Below, in pieces: positions 7,735 to 53,254 of a stretch of 59,819 bases of DNA (position 1 is its first letter; each line of letters starts with the position of its first letter). A model generated the notes under the pieces. That model worked only from the letters and a program-made list of their open reading frames with translations, had not been told where the DNA came from and did not search any database. The position numbers were made by a program, and so were the translations under genes. This DNA is from Acidithiobacillus marinus (lineage in GTDB: Bacteria; Pseudomonadota; Gammaproteobacteria; Acidithiobacillales; Acidithiobacillaceae). The DNA lies in NCBI RefSeq assembly GCF_002847505.1, contig NZ_MXAV01000027.1:1-59819 (forward strand), read 5' to 3'.

Positions 7735-7810
7735 GGGAATGTAGCTCAGTCGGTAGAGCAGCGGCCTTTTAAGCCGTGGGTCGCGGGTTCGAATCCCGCC
7801 GTTCCCACCA
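7735..7810 (+). tRNA. tRNA-Lys(UUU)
   Basis: A 76-base cloverleaf with encoded CCA. The acceptor arm GGGAATG pairs with CGTTCCC, the T arm GCGGG-TTCGAAT-CCCGC is intact, and the anticodon loop CTTTTAA in a GCGGC/GCCGT stem gives anticodon TTT (lysine). Its 3' part, from 7765 onward, is the attachment site of the integrative element downstream, so insertion left a complete tRNA gene on the left. Confidence 0.97.
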
Positions 7811-7813
7811 TTA
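7765..7813 (+). repeat. attL, 49-bp copy inside tRNA-Lys
   Basis: Covers the anticodon-to-CCA part of tRNA-Lys plus three bases (TTA). It is identical to 14176-14224. The first differing bases are 7764 (G versus C) and 7814 (A versus T). Confidence 0.95.
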
Positions 7814-7858
7814 AAAACAAACGCTTACAAGCTATTCCCTTGGTTCAAAATGCTGTCA

Positions 7859-8010
7859 TGGGGCACTGGTGGGACACCTAGCCGCAACTCGTGGGCATCT
7901 TTGGGAATAAAAACCGCACCCCTTTAGCCTTCCCTCTGGCGTTATTGTGACAAGTCACTTTTCTGCGGATAAGTGCCCCATTTTGCCCCGCACTGCCCCA
8001 TCAGTGCCCC
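7859..8010. promoter_or_regulatory. Left integrase arm-site array (GGGGCA / TGCCCC)
   Basis: GGGGCA at 7860 and GGGACA at 7871 are 11 bp apart. On the opposite strand TGCCCC recurs at 7974, 7984, 7994 and 8005, spaced 10, 10 and 11 bp. A related array sits at the right end of the element. Helical phasing at both ends suggests arm-type binding sites for the element integrase or its accessory factor. This role is inferred. Confidence 0.6.
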
Positions 8011-8189
8011 GTATCCGCTTTCATGGTGGACTGATGATATATAAATCATTGTGTTGTCTTTCATACGCTCCGGCTATGTAAGCCATTGTTGCGCTTTTTT
8101 GCCGTGTTTGCCATAATAAAAAAACAGGCCGGGGGTGTTCTCAGCACCCGCCCAGCCCTACCACCGCAAGCTATGAAGGAGCCTGCAAA

Positions 8190-8228
8190 ATGGATAACGC
8201 GATTATATCAATCTGGCGGGGTGCATGA
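8190..8228 (+). CDS. 12-residue leader peptide upstream of integrase
   Basis: The short frame MDNAIISIWRGA has a strong AAGGAG Shine-Dalgarno (8176-8181) with 8-base spacing, and its TGA ends one base before the integrase ATG at 8230. The integrase itself has no good Shine-Dalgarno, so its translation may depend on this peptide being read. It is too short for family recognition. The function as a coupling or attenuation leader is inferred. Confidence 0.5.
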   Translation: MDNAIISIWRGA

Positions 8229-8229
8229 C

Positions 8230-9303
8230 ATGGCCGCCATAGAGAAGCGCACCGCCAGCGACGGCACCACGTCCTATAGGGTGAAGGTCAGACTACGGGG
8301 CCAGCCTGTCCAGTCCGCCACCTTCGCCAGTCTGACGAAGGCCAAACAATGGGCCACCCAGACCGAAGCCGCCATAAGGGAAGGTCGGCACTTCAAAACG
8401 TCTGAGGCCAAGCGTCACACTTTGGTGGAGGCCATCGAGCGATACGAACGGGAGAACCTGCAAGGTATGCGGGCCAAGGATGCCAGAAAACAGCATCTTG
8501 ATTACTGGAAGGCCGAACTAGGCACTCTATCCCTTGCGGACGTAACCCCTGCCGCCGTGAAGCAGAAACTAGCCCAGCTTGCCGACAATCCCAGCGAGCG
8601 CACCGGGAGGCCGCGTAGTGCTTCGACGCTGAACCATTACCGCCAAGCGCTGGCGTCTGTACTCACGGAAGCCGTAAAAGATTGGGAATGGCTGGAAGCA
8701 TCGCCTATGGTCAAGGTCGGCAAGAAAGCAGAGCCAAGGGGCCGCGTGCGCTACCTGTCAGACGATGAGCGCGAACGCCTGCTATTAGCCTGCAAAGAAT
8801 CCGCCAATGATGATTTATATCTTGCCGTGCTGCTGGCGCTGACCACTGGCGGCAGGCAAGCCGAGACAATGGGCGCGTCATGGTCACAGGTAGACTTGAG
8901 CCGGGCCACCTTGCAGCTTGAGGAAACGAAGAACGGCAGCCGCCGCGCTTTGCACTTGGTCGGTCCCGTGCTGGATATGCTCAAGGAGCGGGCCAAGGTG
9001 CGCCGGATAGATACGGGCTTGCTGTTCCCAAGCAAGGTGAATCCTAAGCAGCCTGTAGACCTTCGTACCCCTTGGGAAAACGCACTCAAGGCGGCAGGCA
9101 TCGAGGGCTTCCACTGGCACGACCTGCGCCATACGTTCGCCAGCATGGCCGCTATGAACGGGGCCAGCCTGCCCGAACTCGCCGCGTTACTCGGTCATAA
9201 GACCTTGGCAATGGTCCAGAGATACGCGCACTTGTCGCCTCAGCATACCGCTTCACTGGCGGAACGGGTCGCCGCCCAGATGGTGGGTGGGGGTGCGGCA
9301 TGA
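8230..9303 (+). CDS. Site-specific tyrosine recombinase (element integrase)
   Basis: 357-residue integrase catalysing integration and excision at tRNA-Lys. An arm-binding N-terminal part (AAIEKRTASDGTTSYRVKVR) and SAM-like core (about 60-165) precede the catalytic domain. Catalytic arginine lies in TTGGRQAETMGASW, then HDLRHTFAS supplies His and Arg, LLGHKT the second His, and MVQRYAHLS the nucleophilic Tyr, all intact. The ATG at 8230 follows the leader peptide by one base. Longer in-frame starts upstream overlap the leader and hairpin region and look less likely. The final codons overlap the next gene (ATGATG at 9300). Confidence 0.95.
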   Translation: MAAIEKRTASDGTTSYRVKVRLRGQPVQSATFASLTKAKQWATQTEAAIREGRHFKTSEAKRHTLVEAIERYERENLQGMRAKDARKQHLDYWKAELGTLSLADVTPAAVKQKLAQLADNPSERTGRPRSASTLNHYRQALASVLTEAVKDWEWLEASPMVKVGKKAEPRGRVRYLSDDERERLLLACKESANDDLYLAVLLALTTGGRQAETMGASWSQVDLSRATLQLEETKNGSRRALHLVGPVLDMLKERAKVRRIDTGLLFPSKVNPKQPVDLRTPWENALKAAGIEGFHWHDLRHTFASMAAMNGASLPELAALLGHKTLAMVQRYAHLSPQHTASLAERVAAQMVGGGAA

Positions 9304-10187
9304 TGCGCGAACTCACTCAAGAGCAAACGGAAGCCTTAGCCATTGCAGAGAAATGGGAAAAAAGGGTTTCCGAAGAAATCGCCGCCGCCACCATAGAACC
9401 ATACTGCCCTACTGAAGCCGAGCGGCAAGAATTCGCCCAAGCCTTCGAGCGTGCCCACGAAGCAGGGGAAATATCTGACAAGGATTTTGCCCGCGCCCGC
9501 ATTGAAGGAACGCTTGCACGGTGGCAATTGGAAGCATGGGAAGCGGCAGGCAAGCCCGAACCTGTGCCCGACAACATCACGGACGGCAGGCCGCCAATAG
9601 AAAGTGTTGGCGTGCCCGTTGTGGATAAAGCCCTACAGTATATCAACATGCCCGCGCATGTATTCCTGCGTAATGTTGCCTATCTGCTGAACGAGAGCGA
9701 CGACGCCCTAGAGATTGCCGAGCGCCGGGCCAAGGATTGCGATAAGGCCGCCCGACTACTCAAGGAAGCCGCCGCGTTGCTCAGGGAAGCCGATAACGAA
9801 CCGCTAGCCCGTAACGTGGAAGCATTGGCACCGTGGGCAGAGCGTGGCAAGTATGGGCGTGTGTATCCCGCCGGGCTGTCCGGGCGGCACATGCACGCAA
9901 GCCAGCACGGGGATGCTCTATCCGCTGCGTTTGCAGGGAAGCGAGGCACGCCCAGCCGTAAAGGGGCTATTGTTCGCGCCTTGGCGGGGTGTTTCACCGT
10001 TGACGGGCCTTTTGTTGAAGCAGGGGGATTTACCATCATCGCCAGAATAGCCAATCTCTGCGAGCTGGGCACTACGCCAAACTTTGTCCGCTCAGTGATG
10101 GAGCAGTCAAAGCGCACGGCAGAACCCAAGCCGGAGCCGCGACGGGATAGCAGCATAATCGGGCTATTGTCCAAACCTAAAATATAA
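9300..10187 (+). CDS. Element protein of unknown function (295 aa)
   Basis: No family recognised. The protein is rich in Glu, Ala and Arg. Its N-terminal 75 residues and a central segment (about 135-185, EIAERRAKDCDKAARLLKEA) should form long helices, possibly coiled coil, and the C-terminal part is more mixed (FTVDGPFVEAGGFTIIARI). No signal peptide or membrane helix. The ATG overlaps the integrase stop, so it is co-translated with the recombinase, and a hairpin (10216-10231) follows it. It could be a directionality or replication accessory protein, but nothing in the sequence proves that. Confidence 0.7.
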   Translation: MMRELTQEQTEALAIAEKWEKRVSEEIAAATIEPYCPTEAERQEFAQAFERAHEAGEISDKDFARARIEGTLARWQLEAWEAAGKPEPVPDNITDGRPPIESVGVPVVDKALQYINMPAHVFLRNVAYLLNESDDALEIAERRAKDCDKAARLLKEAAALLREADNEPLARNVEALAPWAERGKYGRVYPAGLSGRHMHASQHGDALSAAFAGKRGTPSRKGAIVRALAGCFTVDGPFVEAGGFTIIARIANLCELGTTPNFVRSVMEQSKRTAEPKPEPRRDSSIIGLLSKPKI

Positions 10188-10215
10188 TCGCCTTTTTTAC
10201 CCACTAAATATTTTA

Positions 10216-10231
10216 GCCCCTTTTTTGGGGC
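10216..10231 (+). terminator. Possible terminator or attenuator hairpin
   Basis: GCCCC and GGGGC enclose six T residues, and the right arm is followed by CATTTCC. A second short inverted repeat (GCCGC-AAATC-GCGGC) lies just before the next Shine-Dalgarno. The weak T tract makes partial attenuation between the integrase and replication modules more likely than full termination. Confidence 0.35.
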
Positions 10232-10306
10232 ATTTCCGTTTATAGGCTTCCGTTTTTTAGCCTTTGCCCATCGCCGCAAATCGCGGCAACTTTGGAGCAA
10301 AGACAA

Positions 10307-10525
10307 ATGCAAGATTTACCCGATTACAAATCAGTGAAGCAGTTTTCAGAATGTCACCCGGCTTTCCCTATTGGCGGACTCAGAAGCGCGATATTTTGGA
10401 AGGGCGACGAACTCGAAGCCGCCGGAGCCATCGCCCGGCTGGGGCGTAGAGTCTTGATTAATGAACCTGTATTCCTGCGCTTTGTGCAGGATGGCGGCCT
10501 GCGGAACATCCGGGGGGCAGCATGA
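10307..10525 (+). CDS. Small helix-turn-helix protein, excisionase/AlpA-like candidate
   Basis: 72-residue protein. The pattern KSVKQFSECHPAFPIGGLR, then a short linker and GAIARLGRRVLINEPVFLRFV, is that of small winged or MerR-type HTH proteins found beside integrases and primases in islands. GGAG lies 9 bases before the ATG at 10307; an earlier ATG at 10292 lacks a site. It is the best candidate for the recombination directionality factor of this element, or for a regulator of the replication operon that it heads. Its stop overlaps the next start (ATGA). Confidence 0.7.
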   Translation: MQDLPDYKSVKQFSECHPAFPIGGLRSAIFWKGDELEAAGAIARLGRRVLINEPVFLRFVQDGGLRNIRGAA

Positions 10526-10860
10526 GTGCCGGGCTTTGGTTTAGCGGTGATACCGCCATTGCGTGGACGTGCCGGGAGTTAATCAAGGGCCGCACCATAT
10601 CCCATGCCGATGAAATCGCCGAAGTTGGCGCGTGGAGACTGGGCGCGATAATCCACGTTTTACGGACACGTTATAAATGGCCGATTACCACCGAGCGCCG
10701 GGGTGTCGAGCGTATCGCGTACTATCGGCTAGGCCGGAGCGCCGAACCGCTGAAACTTCCGAAAAGCGCAAGGGAAGGCGACGCCGCAAACGCCGCCAAG
10801 GATACCGAAAGCAAGCAGGCAACCACCCAAGAGCAGGGGGGAAACCATGCAGAAGCATAG
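10522..10860 (+). CDS. Winged-helix-like DNA-binding protein
   Basis: 112 residues. The segment ISHADEIAEVGAWRLGAIIH and following LRTRYKWPITTERR-IAYYRL resembles the small helix-turn-helix domain used by phage and island proteins, where a recognition helix and wing end in a Tyr-rich strand. The C-terminal 40 residues are low complexity, rich in Lys/Glu/Ala/Gln, and probably disordered. Overlaps the preceding and following genes. Possibly a replication initiator accessory or repressor. Confidence 0.6.
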   Translation: MSAGLWFSGDTAIAWTCRELIKGRTISHADEIAEVGAWRLGAIIHVLRTRYKWPITTERRGVERIAYYRLGRSAEPLKLPKSAREGDAANAAKDTESKQATTQEQGGNHAEA

Positions 10861-10951
10861 CACATACAAGCAGATACGCCACAACCTAGCCCGCATGTTC
10901 TGGAGCCTGCGGAAGCTGCGCCGGGCTATGGGGGTGCAACATGGCAAATAA
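10847..10951 (+). CDS. 34-residue basic peptide in replication operon
   Basis: Frame MQKHSTYKQIRHNLARMFW... ends in GVQHGK, with a G6 Shine-Dalgarno 5 bases before the ATG. It overlaps the preceding gene by 14 bases and the following Toprim gene by 11, so it fills the only gap in the operon. The peptide is strongly basic and amphipathic (IRHNLARMFWSLRKLRRAM), consistent with nucleic-acid or membrane contact. It may simply couple translation of the Toprim protein. Confidence 0.45.
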   Translation: MQKHSTYKQIRHNLARMFWSLRKLRRAMGVQHGK

Positions 10952-11840
10952 CCCCATTGCAGCCTTTCGTGAAGCCTTGGCGTCTGCTGGTGTAATCCTT
11001 CACCCGTCCGAAACAATCCGCGCTGATGGTGTCTTGCATCGCGCCAGAAGTGCCGACGATAGGCCCGGTAAAGTGTCCTGCTGGTATCGTTTGCACCTTG
11101 ACGCGCCCATTGCTGGCGCTGGTGGCTCTTGGAAGTCCGGGGCTTCCGTGCGCTGGTGCAGTAAGAGAGAATCAGCACTCACCGCCAAGGAACGCGCCGA
11201 ACTCGCCGCCCGTATCCTGCGGGAACGTGCCGAAGCTCAGGCCGAACAAGAAGCCCGTTACCGTAACGCTTCCGAGCGTGCCGCCCGTATCTGGGCAGCT
11301 TCAGCGCCAGCCGACGCCATGCACCCATATTTGCAGCGCAAGGGCATACAGCCAGGTATTAGCCGCCAGTCTGGGCCTGCATTGGTTCTGCCTGTTCAGG
11401 GCTACGCCGGGAAACTTTGGGGCTTGCAATTCATCCAGCCGGACGGCGGCAAACGCTTTCTATCCGGCATGAAAAAATCAGGCTGTTTTATCCGCACCGC
11501 TGACATGCCCGCACCTGATACCCGGCTGATAATCTGCGAAGGCTGGGCGACGGGCCAAACCTTGGCGGCACTCAGCCCGGGGGCTTGTGTTATCAGTGCA
11601 CTGGATGCAGGCAATTTGCAGGCCGTGGCAACCGAAGCCCGCCGCCTGTTCCCTGCGCTGGATATGGTAATTGCTGCGGACTTGGGCGAAGTCGGTTTAT
11701 CCAAAGCCAAGGCCGCTGCTATTGCAGCCCGTGCCCGCTGGATATGGCCCAGACTGCCCGCTGATGCACCTGCATGGGTAAATGATTTTAACGATTGGCA
11801 CACATGGCGGAAATCTCAGCGGCAGGGGGTGGCGTCATGA
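10941..11840 (+). CDS. Toprim-domain protein, P4/TraC-type primase relative
   Basis: 299 residues. An N-terminal region (1-125) precedes the Toprim domain (about 190-290). LIICEGWATGQTLAAL holds the conserved Glu near residue 198, and MVIAADLGEVG stands where relatives have the metal-binding AADxD. The C-terminal FNDW matches the usual DFND end. The second acidic motif therefore reads D-L-G-E rather than the common D-N-D, which may alter metal binding. Paired with the helicase downstream, it likely makes primers for element replication. No zinc-binding CHC2 motif is visible. Confidence 0.8.
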   Translation: MANNPIAAFREALASAGVILHPSETIRADGVLHRARSADDRPGKVSCWYRLHLDAPIAGAGGSWKSGASVRWCSKRESALTAKERAELAARILRERAEAQAEQEARYRNASERAARIWAASAPADAMHPYLQRKGIQPGISRQSGPALVLPVQGYAGKLWGLQFIQPDGGKRFLSGMKKSGCFIRTADMPAPDTRLIICEGWATGQTLAALSPGACVISALDAGNLQAVATEARRLFPALDMVIAADLGEVGLSKAKAAAIAARARWIWPRLPADAPAWVNDFNDWHTWRKSQRQGVAS

Positions 11841-13285
11841 GCTGGGCCGACGATATACCGCCATTGGAAGCATACGACGAGTTCGAGCCATCACCGCCGC
11901 GCCTGTCCGTTGTGCAGGATACTGGGACTGCTGACGATGTTCTGCCGGAATCGGAACCCGCCGTAAACATCCCAACCGTGGACGTGGCCGGAGTCTGGGA
12001 CAACCCCAGCCCTGAGCCGGATTTTGTCTGGGATAAATATATCCCGCGTGGGCATGTTTGCCTGTTATCTGGGCATGGTGGAAGTGGCAAGAGTACCGCC
12101 GCGCTTCAACTATGTGTTGCAGTGGCAATGGGTTTGCCGTTGTTCGGTGTCCCGACGACGCAAGGCCCTGTTGTGTTCTTCTCAGGTGAAGATGCAGGGC
12201 CAATCCTGCGCCATCGTCTCGCTGGCATCTGTCACAACCTGAACGTCAACCCGCATCTTCTGGCGGAGCGTTTGACAGTACTGGATGCCACCAGCGAGCC
12301 TGTTTTATATCGAGAGCTTGCGGAGTTTGGGCGGCACACCTTGGAACCTGCGCCCGTGTTCCACCGACTGGCGGAAATACTCACCGAGCGCCAGCCCGCG
12401 TTGTGCGTGGTGGATAACGCAAGCGACGCATACGAGGCCAACGAAAACGACAGGGCGCAAGTGCGGGCTTTCGTTCGTGGGCTGGCATCGCTGGGCCGCC
12501 AAGGAAGCAACCCTGCAATCATGTTGCTTACCCATACACCCAAGGCCAGCGTAAGGGGTGGCGGAGAGTCATACAGCGGCAGCACGGCATGGCATAACTC
12601 AGCACGCGCCCGCCTGAGTCTGGCACCGGACAGGGACGACACCAGCCGCGTTGTGCTGAGTCTGGATAAAATGAACCTTGCACCCATGACTGCGGAACCG
12701 TTGCGCCTTGCCCGGACAATGGGCGGGGTGCTGGTGCTGGATGAGCCTACCCACGACGCGGCAGGCGAACCAACCGAGCCACCACAAACGGCGCTGCTGC
12801 GAGTGCTGGGCGACTTTAACCACCGTGGCGAGCATGTATCAGCCGAGCAGTCAGCGCACACCAACGCATGGAAGCTATGCCGCCCAGAGCCATCATTCCC
12901 TAAGCGGGCATTCCCTGTTGCCGGGCCGTTGTTTGCCACTCTCCGCCAAATGGAACGCGACGGGCTTATTGAGAAAGGCACCTACGTCAACGCCTACCGG
13001 AAAGACAGGCAGGAATGGTTACTCACCGCCAAAGGATGGGATGCAATCGGGGAATCTGCGCCAACCGCGCCAACCGCGCCAACGTATGGGGATGGCGCAC
13101 TTGACGCAGACAGCACCAGCGTTGCGCCAACCGCGCCAACGTATGGTGCAGGGGGTATGGGGGATTTTTTAGCGCAAGACGTTGGCGCAAATCTTCCCGA
13201 TTCACCCTTGGCGGAAAAATCAGTCTGTCCACGTTGCGACGGTGAAGGGTGCGGGTTCTGCCAGCCAGAAGGGGCTAGCCAATGA
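11837..13285 (+). CDS. RepA-like hexameric helicase / AAA_25 ATPase
   Basis: 482 residues. RecA-fold ATPase with Walker A GHGGSGKST (about 79-87), GEDAGPILRHR, and Walker B LCVVDN (about 188-194), then a TPKAS region and an arginine-rich stretch, as in the RSF1010 RepA family. A winged-helix-like part (about 330-400) follows, then an Ala/Pro/Thr repeat coded by the iterons at 13058-13141, and a CPRCDGEGCGFC zinc-type knuckle near 465-476. The ATG at 11837 overlaps the Toprim stop and has an AGGGGG 9 bases upstream. Expected role: unwinding DNA at the element origin. Confidence 0.88.
   Translation: MSWADDIPPLEAYDEFEPSPPRLSVVQDTGTADDVLPESEPAVNIPTVDVAGVWDNPSPEPDFVWDKYIPRGHVCLLSGHGGSGKSTAALQLCVAVAMGLPLFGVPTTQGPVVFFSGEDAGPILRHRLAGICHNLNVNPHLLAERLTVLDATSEPVLYRELAEFGRHTLEPAPVFHRLAEILTERQPALCVVDNASDAYEANENDRAQVRAFVRGLASLGRQGSNPAIMLLTHTPKASVRGGGESYSGSTAWHNSARARLSLAPDRDDTSRVVLSLDKMNLAPMTAEPLRLARTMGGVLVLDEPTHDAAGEPTEPPQTALLRVLGDFNHRGEHVSAEQSAHTNAWKLCRPEPSFPKRAFPVAGPLFATLRQMERDGLIEKGTYVNAYRKDRQEWLLTAKGWDAIGESAPTAPTAPTYGDGALDADSTSVAPTAPTYGAGGMGDFLAQDVGANLPDSPLAEKSVCPRCDGEGCGFCQPEGASQ
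13058..13188. repeat. GCGCCAAC iteron cluster in helicase gene
   Basis: Three tandem 9-bp units GCGCCAACC/G at 13058-13084, two more at 13124-13141, and an inverted copy GTTGGCGC at 13181-13188. They code for repeated Pro-Thr-Ala in the helicase. Replication origins of small plasmids often have such iterons, so this may be the element origin; it could also be simple coding-repeat expansion. Confidence 0.5.
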
Positions 13286-13599
13286 AAACCGAGAACGTTG
13301 TCATTTTGTGGGACTACTCGCCAGCTAAGGGCGTGCATAACGTCCTTTTGGCGGAGCGAGGCAACTACCCACAAAGATTTTCAGACGGGGCCGTATATTC
13401 CGACTGGCGGGAACGGGGCGGCTTGTCGGTAGTCTTTGGCATGAAGCGCCGGAAATCCGCCCCAGCCGTAACCCCTGCATATATGGCGGCATGGGCGAAA
13501 CTGTTTGCCCGCACCCCCGACGAACTGGAAGCCGAACGACAGGCCCGGAAGCCAGCACCAGCACCACAGCCACCGGGCAGCCGTGGAACAGTAAAATAG
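13282..13599 (+). CDS. Element protein of unknown function (105 aa)
   Basis: No family recognised. Starts MKTENVVILWDYSPAKGVHN, with a mixed alpha/beta-like first half. The second half is Ala/Glu/Arg-rich and ends in a Pro-rich tail (KPAPAPQPPG). Its ATG overlaps the helicase stop. Last gene of the rightward replication operon. No membrane segment or metal motif. Confidence 0.6.
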   Translation: MKTENVVILWDYSPAKGVHNVLLAERGNYPQRFSDGAVYSDWRERGGLSVVFGMKRRKSAPAVTPAYMAAWAKLFARTPDELEAERQARKPAPAPQPPGSRGTVK

Positions 13600-14175
13600 T
13601 GGAAATTGCTGGAACCGCCAAAGGCAACCCAAAGGCAACCGCCATCCTCACCACTGGCGGCACCTCCAAGGCCAAAGGCAAACGCTCAGCAAGGCTCTTT
13701 CCTTGCCCTGTGCTGCATTCTACGGCATAGGGTGCGGCCACCGTACCACTCACACGGAAAAACGCCTTAAACGCGCCCGTCATCGTGACCGCTGATAGTC
13801 AGCATTGGCAGACATTACAGCCCCATGATGGACGGATGGTGGACGTCTGTATGAATTTTGCTCACGTCCTGATGACGCAAAGTGGCAGGTGTGGTTGCAC
13901 CCTGCCACCACAAAAAAAGTGGCCGGGCAAGTAGCCAGTGGCCGCCACAAAAAAAAGAGGTCGCGCCCTAGTCGCACCCTGCAACCATAAAAAAGGCTGG
14001 TGCTGTTACTGCGTAACGACACACTGACTAACTGCCCCGTGGGGCACTCATGGGACACTCAGGGGCAAAAAACGGGAGTTATTCACAATCAACAGGAAAC
14101 AGCGCCAGCGTGTAAGGCTCTGTTTTTATAGTCGTATTTATTGCCCGTTTATTGCGGAGTGTGCAACGTCCCTGC
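13600..14175. other. Non-coding right end of the tRNA-Lys element
   Basis: No convincing gene. It holds AAAGGCAACC direct repeats near 13620-13640, an A-rich hairpin (GCCAC-CACAAAAAAA-GTGGC, about 13904-13923) that could terminate the replication operon, and the integrase arm sites near the attachment site. An antisense frame over the tRNA remnant is not a gene. Confidence 0.6.
14033..14067. promoter_or_regulatory. Right integrase arm-site array
   Basis: TGCCCC at 14033, then GGGGCA at 14041, GGGACA at 14052 and GGGGCA at 14062, spaced 11 and 10 bp. The block 14040-14062 matches 7859-7881 at 19 of 23 positions. This pairing at both ends supports binding sites for the integrase or a partner. 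Confidence 0.6.
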
Positions 14176-14224
14176 CCTTTTAAGCCGTGGGTCGCGGGTT
14201 CGAATCCCGCCGTTCCCACCATTA
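14176..14224 (+). repeat. attR, 49-bp tRNA-Lys remnant
   Basis: Perfect copy of 7765-7813, holding the tRNA 3' half without a 5' half, so it is not a functional tRNA. It marks the right boundary of the element, 34 bases before the end of the sulfotransferase gene. Confidence 0.95.

Positions 14225-53178: not shown

Positions 53179-53254
<76 letters not shown>

What the first reader, a model, noticed from the sequence alone, without database searches (positions are those of the whole stretch)
7765..14224. Minimal 6.4-kb integrative element with its own replication module in tRNA-Lys
Perfect 49-bp direct repeats bound one rightward set of genes: integrase, HTH, winged-helix, Toprim, RepA-like helicase and unknowns, without capsid, conjugation or relaxase genes. 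A primase-helicase pair next to an integrase suggests excision and autonomous replication, as in phage satellites or integrated cryptic plasmids. I do not recognise this exact gene set.
Basis: partly seen in the sequence, partly recalled or inferred. Interest (0 to 1): 0.8.

Follow-up and report, generated by a model that had tools for sequence, protein, structure and literature searches.

The report
Minimal phage-satellite-like island in Acidithiobacillus
A 6.4-kb DNA island sits cleanly inside a tRNA gene of an acid-loving sulfur bacterium and belongs to a family of similar-sized islands in its relatives; it looks like a stripped-down parasite that would travel in the particles of a virus not yet identified.

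Summary
Perfect 49-bp repeats bound a 6.4-kb island in tRNA-Lys(TTT) of an Acidithiobacillus genome; one congener shows the empty site, another a relative in the same tRNA with the same repeat. Ten elements with both ends found (repeat spacing 6.4-8.5 kb, six tRNA types) lie in the family; in 12 of 12 examined, int ends in an ATGA overlap with the next gene. The window element encodes int, that partner gene, a winged-helix excisionase-like protein, a Toprim primase and an RSF1010-RepA-like helicase, all under purifying selection, with integrase-arm-like doublets at both ends; ten ORFs scanned gave no structural, lysis or relaxase family. Five of the ten carry terminase-small-subunit-like genes; the window's does not. 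The best-covered phage-record match of the primase is AH14b, a reported satellite. The layout closely resembles Vibrio PICMIs, but insertion site and primase family fail PICMI membership, and length fails PICI. Most likely a minimal phage satellite of a new variant. Excision, replication, packaging and helper are unshown; two terminase-family searches of 17 congeners found one convincing phage contig, in another genome.

The parts
7735..7810 (+). tRNA-Lys(TTT), the integration site, left intact
   Evidence: ARAGORN, Rfam
7765..7813 (+). attL repeat
   Evidence: perfect 49-bp direct repeat; empty site in G009
7860..7877 (+). left arm-like doublet GGGRCAC-N4-GGGRCAC
   Evidence: one of only two in the whole window; starts 95 bp from attL start, 95-97 in 7 elements
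8230..9303 (+). tyrosine integrase (open frame from 8086)
   Evidence: Pfam 2.3e-29; dN/dS 0.14 against E1; start by alignment and ATG
9300..10187 (+). 295-aa protein overlapping int by ATGA; like PICMI iolg in position only
   Evidence: homologues in 8 of 12 elements, window included; overlap
10307..10525 (+). 72-aa winged-helix protein, excisionase/AlpA-like (open frame from 10292)
   Evidence: homologues in 11 of 12 elements, window included; model aligns best with excisionases, Z about 6; no Pfam AlpA match
10522..10860 (+). 112-aa protein of unknown function, overlaps the previous gene by ATGA
   Evidence: phrog_4973, unknown function, 5.8e-4; dN/dS 0.11; overlap
10941..11840 (+). Toprim primase
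   Evidence: Toprim_3, phrog_2249 DNA primase 8e-52
11837..13285 (+). AAA_25 RepA-like helicase (open frame from 11795)
   Evidence: Pfam, RSF1010 RepA 1g8y, ATGA overlap with primase
13282..13599 (+). 105-aa chimeric ORF: E2-like start joined to a 52-aa conserved small gene (ATG near 13441)
13629..13864 (.). conserved block without a convincing gene, candidate cis site (packaging or origin)
   Evidence: 82% identical to a block in E13, which shares no other DNA with the window element at E<=1e-3
14041..14058 (+). right arm-like doublet
   Evidence: starts 135 bp before attR; 133-135 in 8 elements
14176..14224 (+). attR repeat
   Evidence: empty site

Best explanation
A minimal phage satellite of Acidithiobacillus. 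Proposed cycle: infection or induction of an unidentified helper phage switches on the excisionase/AlpA-like protein; this protein, Int and the int-overlapping protein excise the island across the 49-bp repeats using the arm doublets at both ends; the circle is copied by its own Toprim primase and RepA-like helicase; the DNA is packaged in helper particles and integrates into tRNA-Lys of a new host, rebuilding the tRNA. Some relatives would redirect packaging with their own small terminase subunit; the window copy has none that I could find and would rely on the helper's whole terminase, perhaps through the block 13629-13864. Shown: boundaries, empty site, conserved open genes under purifying selection, family and layout. 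Inferred: excision, replication, regulation, helper, packaging, and the role of the conserved block.
For: Empty site and same-site relative. Ten elements of similar size in six tRNA types. ATGA int overlap in 12 of 12. Arm-like doublets at both ends of 7 of 10 elements at fixed distances. dN/dS 0.11-0.32. GRP-type protein is the gene before TerL in 12 of 12 viral contigs and in both phages examined of seven records, and occurs in E1, E3, E6, E7, E12, where tblastn with two TerLs finds no TerL. The primase's best-covered phage record is AH14b, reported as packaged in AH14a capsids (PMC4936722, abstract and passages). Layout as PICMI115 (PMC10803314, passages).
Against: The window copy has no terS-like gene by the two profiles used. 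No library names the GRP family a terminase. No helper was found: PF03237 gives no match over its cut-off in 17 congeners and phrog_2 one convincing match, in G012. Integrase relatives were not found in IMG/VR, nor an exact pattern of the conserved block. The partner gene and the AlpA-like protein do not match AH14b's. In G018 the GRP gene is followed by a baseplate-hub-like ORF, so there it may belong to a prophage remnant. Excision was not observed.
Confidence: 0.68

Rival explanations
1. An integrative mobilizable element: it excises, replicates and travels through the conjugation machinery of a resident ICE by an oriT on its own DNA, without a relaxase of its own. The block 13629-13864 would then be the oriT.
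For: ICEs are known in Acidithiobacillus (PMC3826726, PMC10322971, passages); primase relatives occur on many conjugative plasmids (2544 of 2900 matching plasmid records predicted conjugative).
Against: No relaxase family in the ten ORFs scanned; terS-like genes in 5 of 10 complete elements have no place in this reading.
Confidence: 0.13
2. An integrated cryptic plasmid: a primase-helicase replicon that acquired an integrase and persists by alternating between circle and chromosome, without dedicated transfer.
For: RepA-like helicase related to that of plasmid RSF1010; own primase.
Against: Uniform size, constant int/partner/AlpA-like core with swapped helicases, terS-like genes in relatives; single chromosomal copy in the assembly.
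Confidence: 0.1
3. A decayed, no longer mobile member of a satellite family.
For: It is the shortest of the ten; no terS-like gene, and its last ORF is chimeric.
Against: Identical att repeats, both arm-like doublets present, main genes open with dN/dS 0.11-0.32; four other complete elements also lack a terS-like gene.
Confidence: 0.09

Closest known systems
PICMI (Phage-Inducible Chromosomal Minimalist Islands, Vibrionaceae; PMC10803314, passages seen)
   Same: About 6 kb; int overlapped by ATGA by a lineage-specific gene (iolg, needed for excision); small regulator, unknown gene, primase; no terS.
   Different: PICMIs lie beside fis and are modelled with a DUF3987/DUF5906 primase; here tRNA-Lys, Toprim_3 primase plus separate RepA-like helicase. 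Sequences were not compared.
Satellite AH14b of Pseudomonas phage AH14a (PMC4936722; KU708005)
   Same: Order integrase, unknown gene, AlpA-family gene, then later a short Toprim primase and a helicase; primase 36% identical over 89% of the query.
   Different: 16.8 kb; the partner gene and AlpA do not match; Int only weakly (7e-5).
PICIs of Gram-negative bacteria (PMC6092414, passages seen)
   Same: Integrase, replication module, regulator; some members carry terS; no structural or lytic genes.
   Different: Typically 12-15 kb; here 6.4 kb.
RSF1010 RepA helicase (1g8y)
   Same: The helicase matches it over 80 residues.
   Different: Only this protein is shared as far as tested; the rest of the RSF1010 gene set is recalled and was not compared.

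Membership tests
PICI (criteria of PMC6092414) | integrase, replication module and master regulator in conserved order | tested here: inconclusive
   int, primase and helicase found; regulator only by fold and position
PICI (criteria of PMC6092414) | no phage structural or lytic genes | tested here: met
   none in ten window ORFs scanned
PICI (criteria of PMC6092414) | size typically 12-15 kb | tested here: not met
   repeat spacing 6411 bp
PICI (criteria of PMC6092414) | att site never occupied by prophages | tested here: inconclusive
   G016 has an island of about 32 kb in the same tRNA; its ORFs were listed but not scanned for phage families
PICMI (model of PMC10803314) | integrase, AlpA (PF05930/PF12728) and primase genes | tested here: inconclusive
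   int and primase present; no Pfam AlpA match, excisionase-like fold
PICMI (model of PMC10803314) | primase of DUF3987/DUF5906 type | tested here: not met
   Toprim_3 and AAA_25 found instead
PICMI (model of PMC10803314) | insertion beside fis | tested here: not met
   tRNA-Lys
PICMI (model of PMC10803314) | int overlapped by iolg (in 21 of 35 subfamilies there) | tested here: met
   ATGA overlap here and in 12 of 12 elements; homology to iolg not tested
phage satellite (general) | excision and packaging that depend on a helper phage | not testable with these tools
   needs induction or phage challenge; indirect evidence only
integrative mobilizable element | own relaxase | tested here: not met
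   no relaxase in ten ORFs scanned
integrative mobilizable element | oriT usable by an ICE | not tested
   no oriT comparison was made

The most novel reading that the evidence does not exclude
Acidithiobacillaceae harbour a large, apparently undescribed family of minimalist phage satellites with swappable replication and terminase modules around a constant core of integrase, overlapping partner gene and excisionase-like regulator. They record an unseen, probably virulent, phage lineage of extreme acidophiles, and members such as the window's lack terS and are recognised by the helper through a short cis site.
Probability: 0.45. Interest if true: 0.65.

Novelty: new variant of a known kind. 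Interest (0 to 1): 0.52.

Why it matters
Known satellite families come mainly from enterobacteria, vibrios and Gram-positive cocci (partly recalled, partly from the passages). A family with so constant a layout in acidophilic sulfur oxidizers would extend the kind to a new group, give a handle for finding their phages, and offer a second lineage in which an int-overlapping partner gene, essential for excision in PICMI115, can be studied.

Tried and rejected
(a) Ordinary prophage remnant: no structural family in ten window ORFs and similar size across relatives. (b) Relationship with AH14b beyond the primase: partner gene and AlpA do not match (profile comparison probability 0.1), Int only weakly; the second gene of vB_Pae_U10 does not match either. 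(c) Unusual folding of the conserved block: z-score -0.91, not unusual. (d) That block in viral contigs: one exact pattern, 0 hits. (e) Integrase relatives in IMG/VR: none; primase: one at 25% identity. (f) Partner gene: no significant Foldseek match; in 398 genomes drawn from the phylum, only the own genome matched strongly and three weakly inside frames of 939-1041 aa. (g) AlpA-like model by Foldseek alone: no match at E<=0.001. (h) Promoter and terminator scans do not exceed shuffles. (i) Defence models: no hit for ten small proteins, four of them from the window. (j) Primase profile against solved structures: none at 0.01. (k) GC does not mark the element. (l) Literature (open library only): Acidithiobacillus + phage satellite, 0 papers; + bacteriophage + PICI, 1 unrelated; + genomic islands + AlpA + primase + integrase, 0; acidithiobacill + satellite + helper phage, 3 papers, 2 listed, not read; broader listings, of which PMC3826726 and PMC10322971 were seen in passages only; the integrated elements in the parts of their tables that I saw are 13.7 kb or longer. 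A terminase + satellites + tRNA + primase search gave 0.

Full report
What is there. The window holds a 6.4-kb island between two identical 49-bp repeats, the left one being the 3' part of an intact tRNA-Lys(TTT). The genus follows from relatives: a helicase 87% identical lies on a contig of Acidithiobacillus sulfurivorans RW2; genome G015, listed as same genus, has a contig of the same length, 39,571 bp, so I take G015 to be that strain. The island is found once in its own genome, with ordinary GC.

Boundaries. The window's flanks joined without the island align to G009 as a single block (query 1-2290, 85%): an empty site. In G015 the same tRNA carries a related element, E1, with repeat spacing 7153; 46 bp are repeated exactly within that locus, and its right copy matches the window's full 49 bp. 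G016 has a different island of about 32 kb in the same tRNA.

Genes. int (Pfam 2.3e-29); a 295-aa gene starting inside int's stop (ATGA); a 72-aa winged-helix protein; a 112-aa gene overlapping it by ATGA; a Toprim_3 primase; an AAA_25 helicase related to RSF1010 RepA (1g8y, 2.4e-5), probably starting in an ATGA overlap with the primase; a 105-aa ORF overlapping the helicase by ATGA. Against E1, dN/dS is 0.14 (int), 0.24 (295-aa), 0.12 (72-aa), 0.11 (112-aa), 0.32 (primase); the helicase against E2 gives 0.16. A slice chosen for the helicase against E4 was out of frame and gave no value. The genes look maintained.

The family. Primase relatives occur in 16 of 29 genomes of the family, own included (the weakest are 28-40% identical). 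I laid out 12 element loci. Ten, E0 (window) to E9, have both ends: repeat spacings 6411, 7153, 7018, 7328, 7352, 7322, 8150, 7117, 8461 and 7452 bp, in tRNA Lys-TTT (4), Gly-CCC (2), Arg-CCT, Gln-CTG, Leu-TAA and Asn-GTT; in E4 and E8 only 18 bp are exactly repeated, and in E6 the tRNA lies at the end away from int. E10 and E11 are cut by contig ends. Other primase-bearing loci fetched (for example in G010, G021, G022, G026) were not given boundaries. In 12 of 12, int ends in ATGA overlapping a start codon. The next gene is homologous to the window's in 8 of the 12, window included, and the excisionase-like gene in 11 of 12 (not E6). The helicase is swapped: in some elements it matches the window's along its length, in others only over the first 140 or so residues and continues as another AAA_25 protein, in others not at all. 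E12 (G016) and E13 (G002) are further loci without defined ends.

Arm-like sites. The doublet GGGRCAC-N4-GGGRCAC occurs exactly twice in the 59.8-kb window, at 7860 and 14041; 0 of 1000 mononucleotide shuffles of the element had two. In 7 of 10 complete elements one starts 95-97 bp from the attL start and one 133-135 bp before attR, whatever the tRNA; E2 has only the right one at this strictness, E6 and E9 none (a looser count of nine elements is). That these are integrase arm sites is inference.

Regulator. The 72-aa protein has no Pfam match at or near a cut-off. Its model (pLDDT 82.5) aligns best with a putative excisionase (2kvv, Z 6.2, 60 residues, 2.7 A) and Tn916 Xis (Z 5.8, 56 residues, 3.0 A); near-tied rows include terminase-motor domains, BldC, an entry on E. 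coli islands that redirect helper packaging, and a phage Xis. Foldseek alone gave nothing at E<=0.001. Such Z values can reflect a common fold only, so 'excisionase/AlpA-like' is a lead.

Why a satellite. First, E1, E3, E6, E7 and E12 carry a GRP-type small protein; E1, E6 and E7 were shown to match phrog_11043, function unknown. In IMG/VR 12 contigs encode relatives, and in 12 of 12 a large terminase lies directly or within about 0.2 kb downstream (ten by PHROGs; L144 and L148 by tblastn). In the two phages examined, of seven records hit, the next gene is TerL. In the element loci, tblastn with those two TerLs found none. This is positional evidence. Against it, in G018 the GRP gene is followed by a baseplate-hub-like ORF and in G017 a weakly head-morphogenesis-like ORF lies nearby, so those two loci may be prophage remnants. 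Second, E5, E6, E13 and a locus in G022 have HGGxSTG-type proteins (domain confirmed for E5 and E6); E6's matches a TerS PHROG at 6.9e-9, E5's only at 0.016, the other two only unlabelled families. A contig-end locus in G014 has a clear TerS (phrog_51, 5.9e-23), but whether it is one of these elements is uncertain. In all, 5 of 10 complete elements (E1, E3, E5, E6, E7) have a TerS-like gene; E0, E2, E4, E8 and E9 do not by these profiles. Third, ranked by coverage and identity the best phage record for the primase is AH14b (36% over 89%; vB_Pae_U10 has a lower E-value over 57%). [quoted passage not shown] But matches to this primase are also common on plasmids: 2900 records, so the primase alone decides nothing. 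Fourth, the layout parallels PICMI115: 6.1 kb, int overlapping iolg by ATGA, alpA, a primase, no terS; int, iolg and alpA are needed there for excision (PMC10803314, passages).

The window copy. Its 105-aa ORF joins an E2-like start to a 52-aa small gene that in E1 and E12 follows the GRP gene directly. The small gene has dN/dS of 0.31-0.59 in three comparisons, weaker constraint than the others. So, relative to E1 and E12, the GRP gene is missing here or was never present. Then comes a block, 13629-13864, 82% identical to one in E13; at E<=1e-3 it is the only DNA that the window element and E13 share, and E13 has neither the window's primase nor its helicase by tblastn. A site read by the element's own replication proteins therefore seems less likely than one read by a helper; E1 and E12 share parts of the block. 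Its function is unproven.

The missing helper. phrog_2 (large terminase) matches 16 of 17 congeners, but it also rings in 11 of 14 control genomes, and only the G012 match looks convincing (1.8e-18; the rest 36 bits or less, including the own genome at 30.5). That G012 contig encodes TerS, a portal or head-tail protein and a major head protein; against the 14 element sequences its only DNA match is 32 bp with E6 (E=0.003). PF03237 gives no match over its cut-off in 17. Other terminase families were not searched. A virulent helper, as for PICMI, would fit but is unproven.

Verdict. By published criteria it is neither a PICI (too small) nor a PICMI (other site, other primase). In all likelihood it works like these. 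I file it as a new variant of a known kind, with excision, replication and packaging still to be shown.

Noticed in passing
L071 4414-4465 to L072 18362-18515 (G016): The same tRNA-Lys holds an unrelated island of about 32 kb with its own integrase (35% identical to the window's over 343 residues).
   Followed up: partly
L166 (G012:C205): Phage or prophage fragment with TerS, TerL, portal-like and major head proteins; the only convincing large-terminase match by phrog_2 among 17 congeners.
   Followed up: partly
L133 (G002:C24) and L081 (G003): A second lineage of small elements with another integrase and helicase; the two share about 1.5 kb at 91% identity, and L133 shares the conserved block with the window.
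   Followed up: partly
L129 894-1985 (G018); L130 11503-12534 (G017): Beside GRP-type genes lie a baseplate-hub-like ORF and a weakly head-morphogenesis-like ORF.
   Followed up: no
L087 9995-11833 (E8, G021): The helicase frame of E8 seems interrupted by transposase-like sequence (label by eye, from no call), which may explain its larger size.
   Followed up: no
L077 1575-1955 (E5): PDDEXK/RusA-like nuclease gene (Pfam PDDEXK_15, phrog_244) near the 3' end; similar-looking ORFs in E3 and E8 were not scanned.
   Followed up: partly
window 53179-53254: A second tRNA gene, Phe(GAA), lies in the window; its surroundings were not examined for another element.
   Followed up: no
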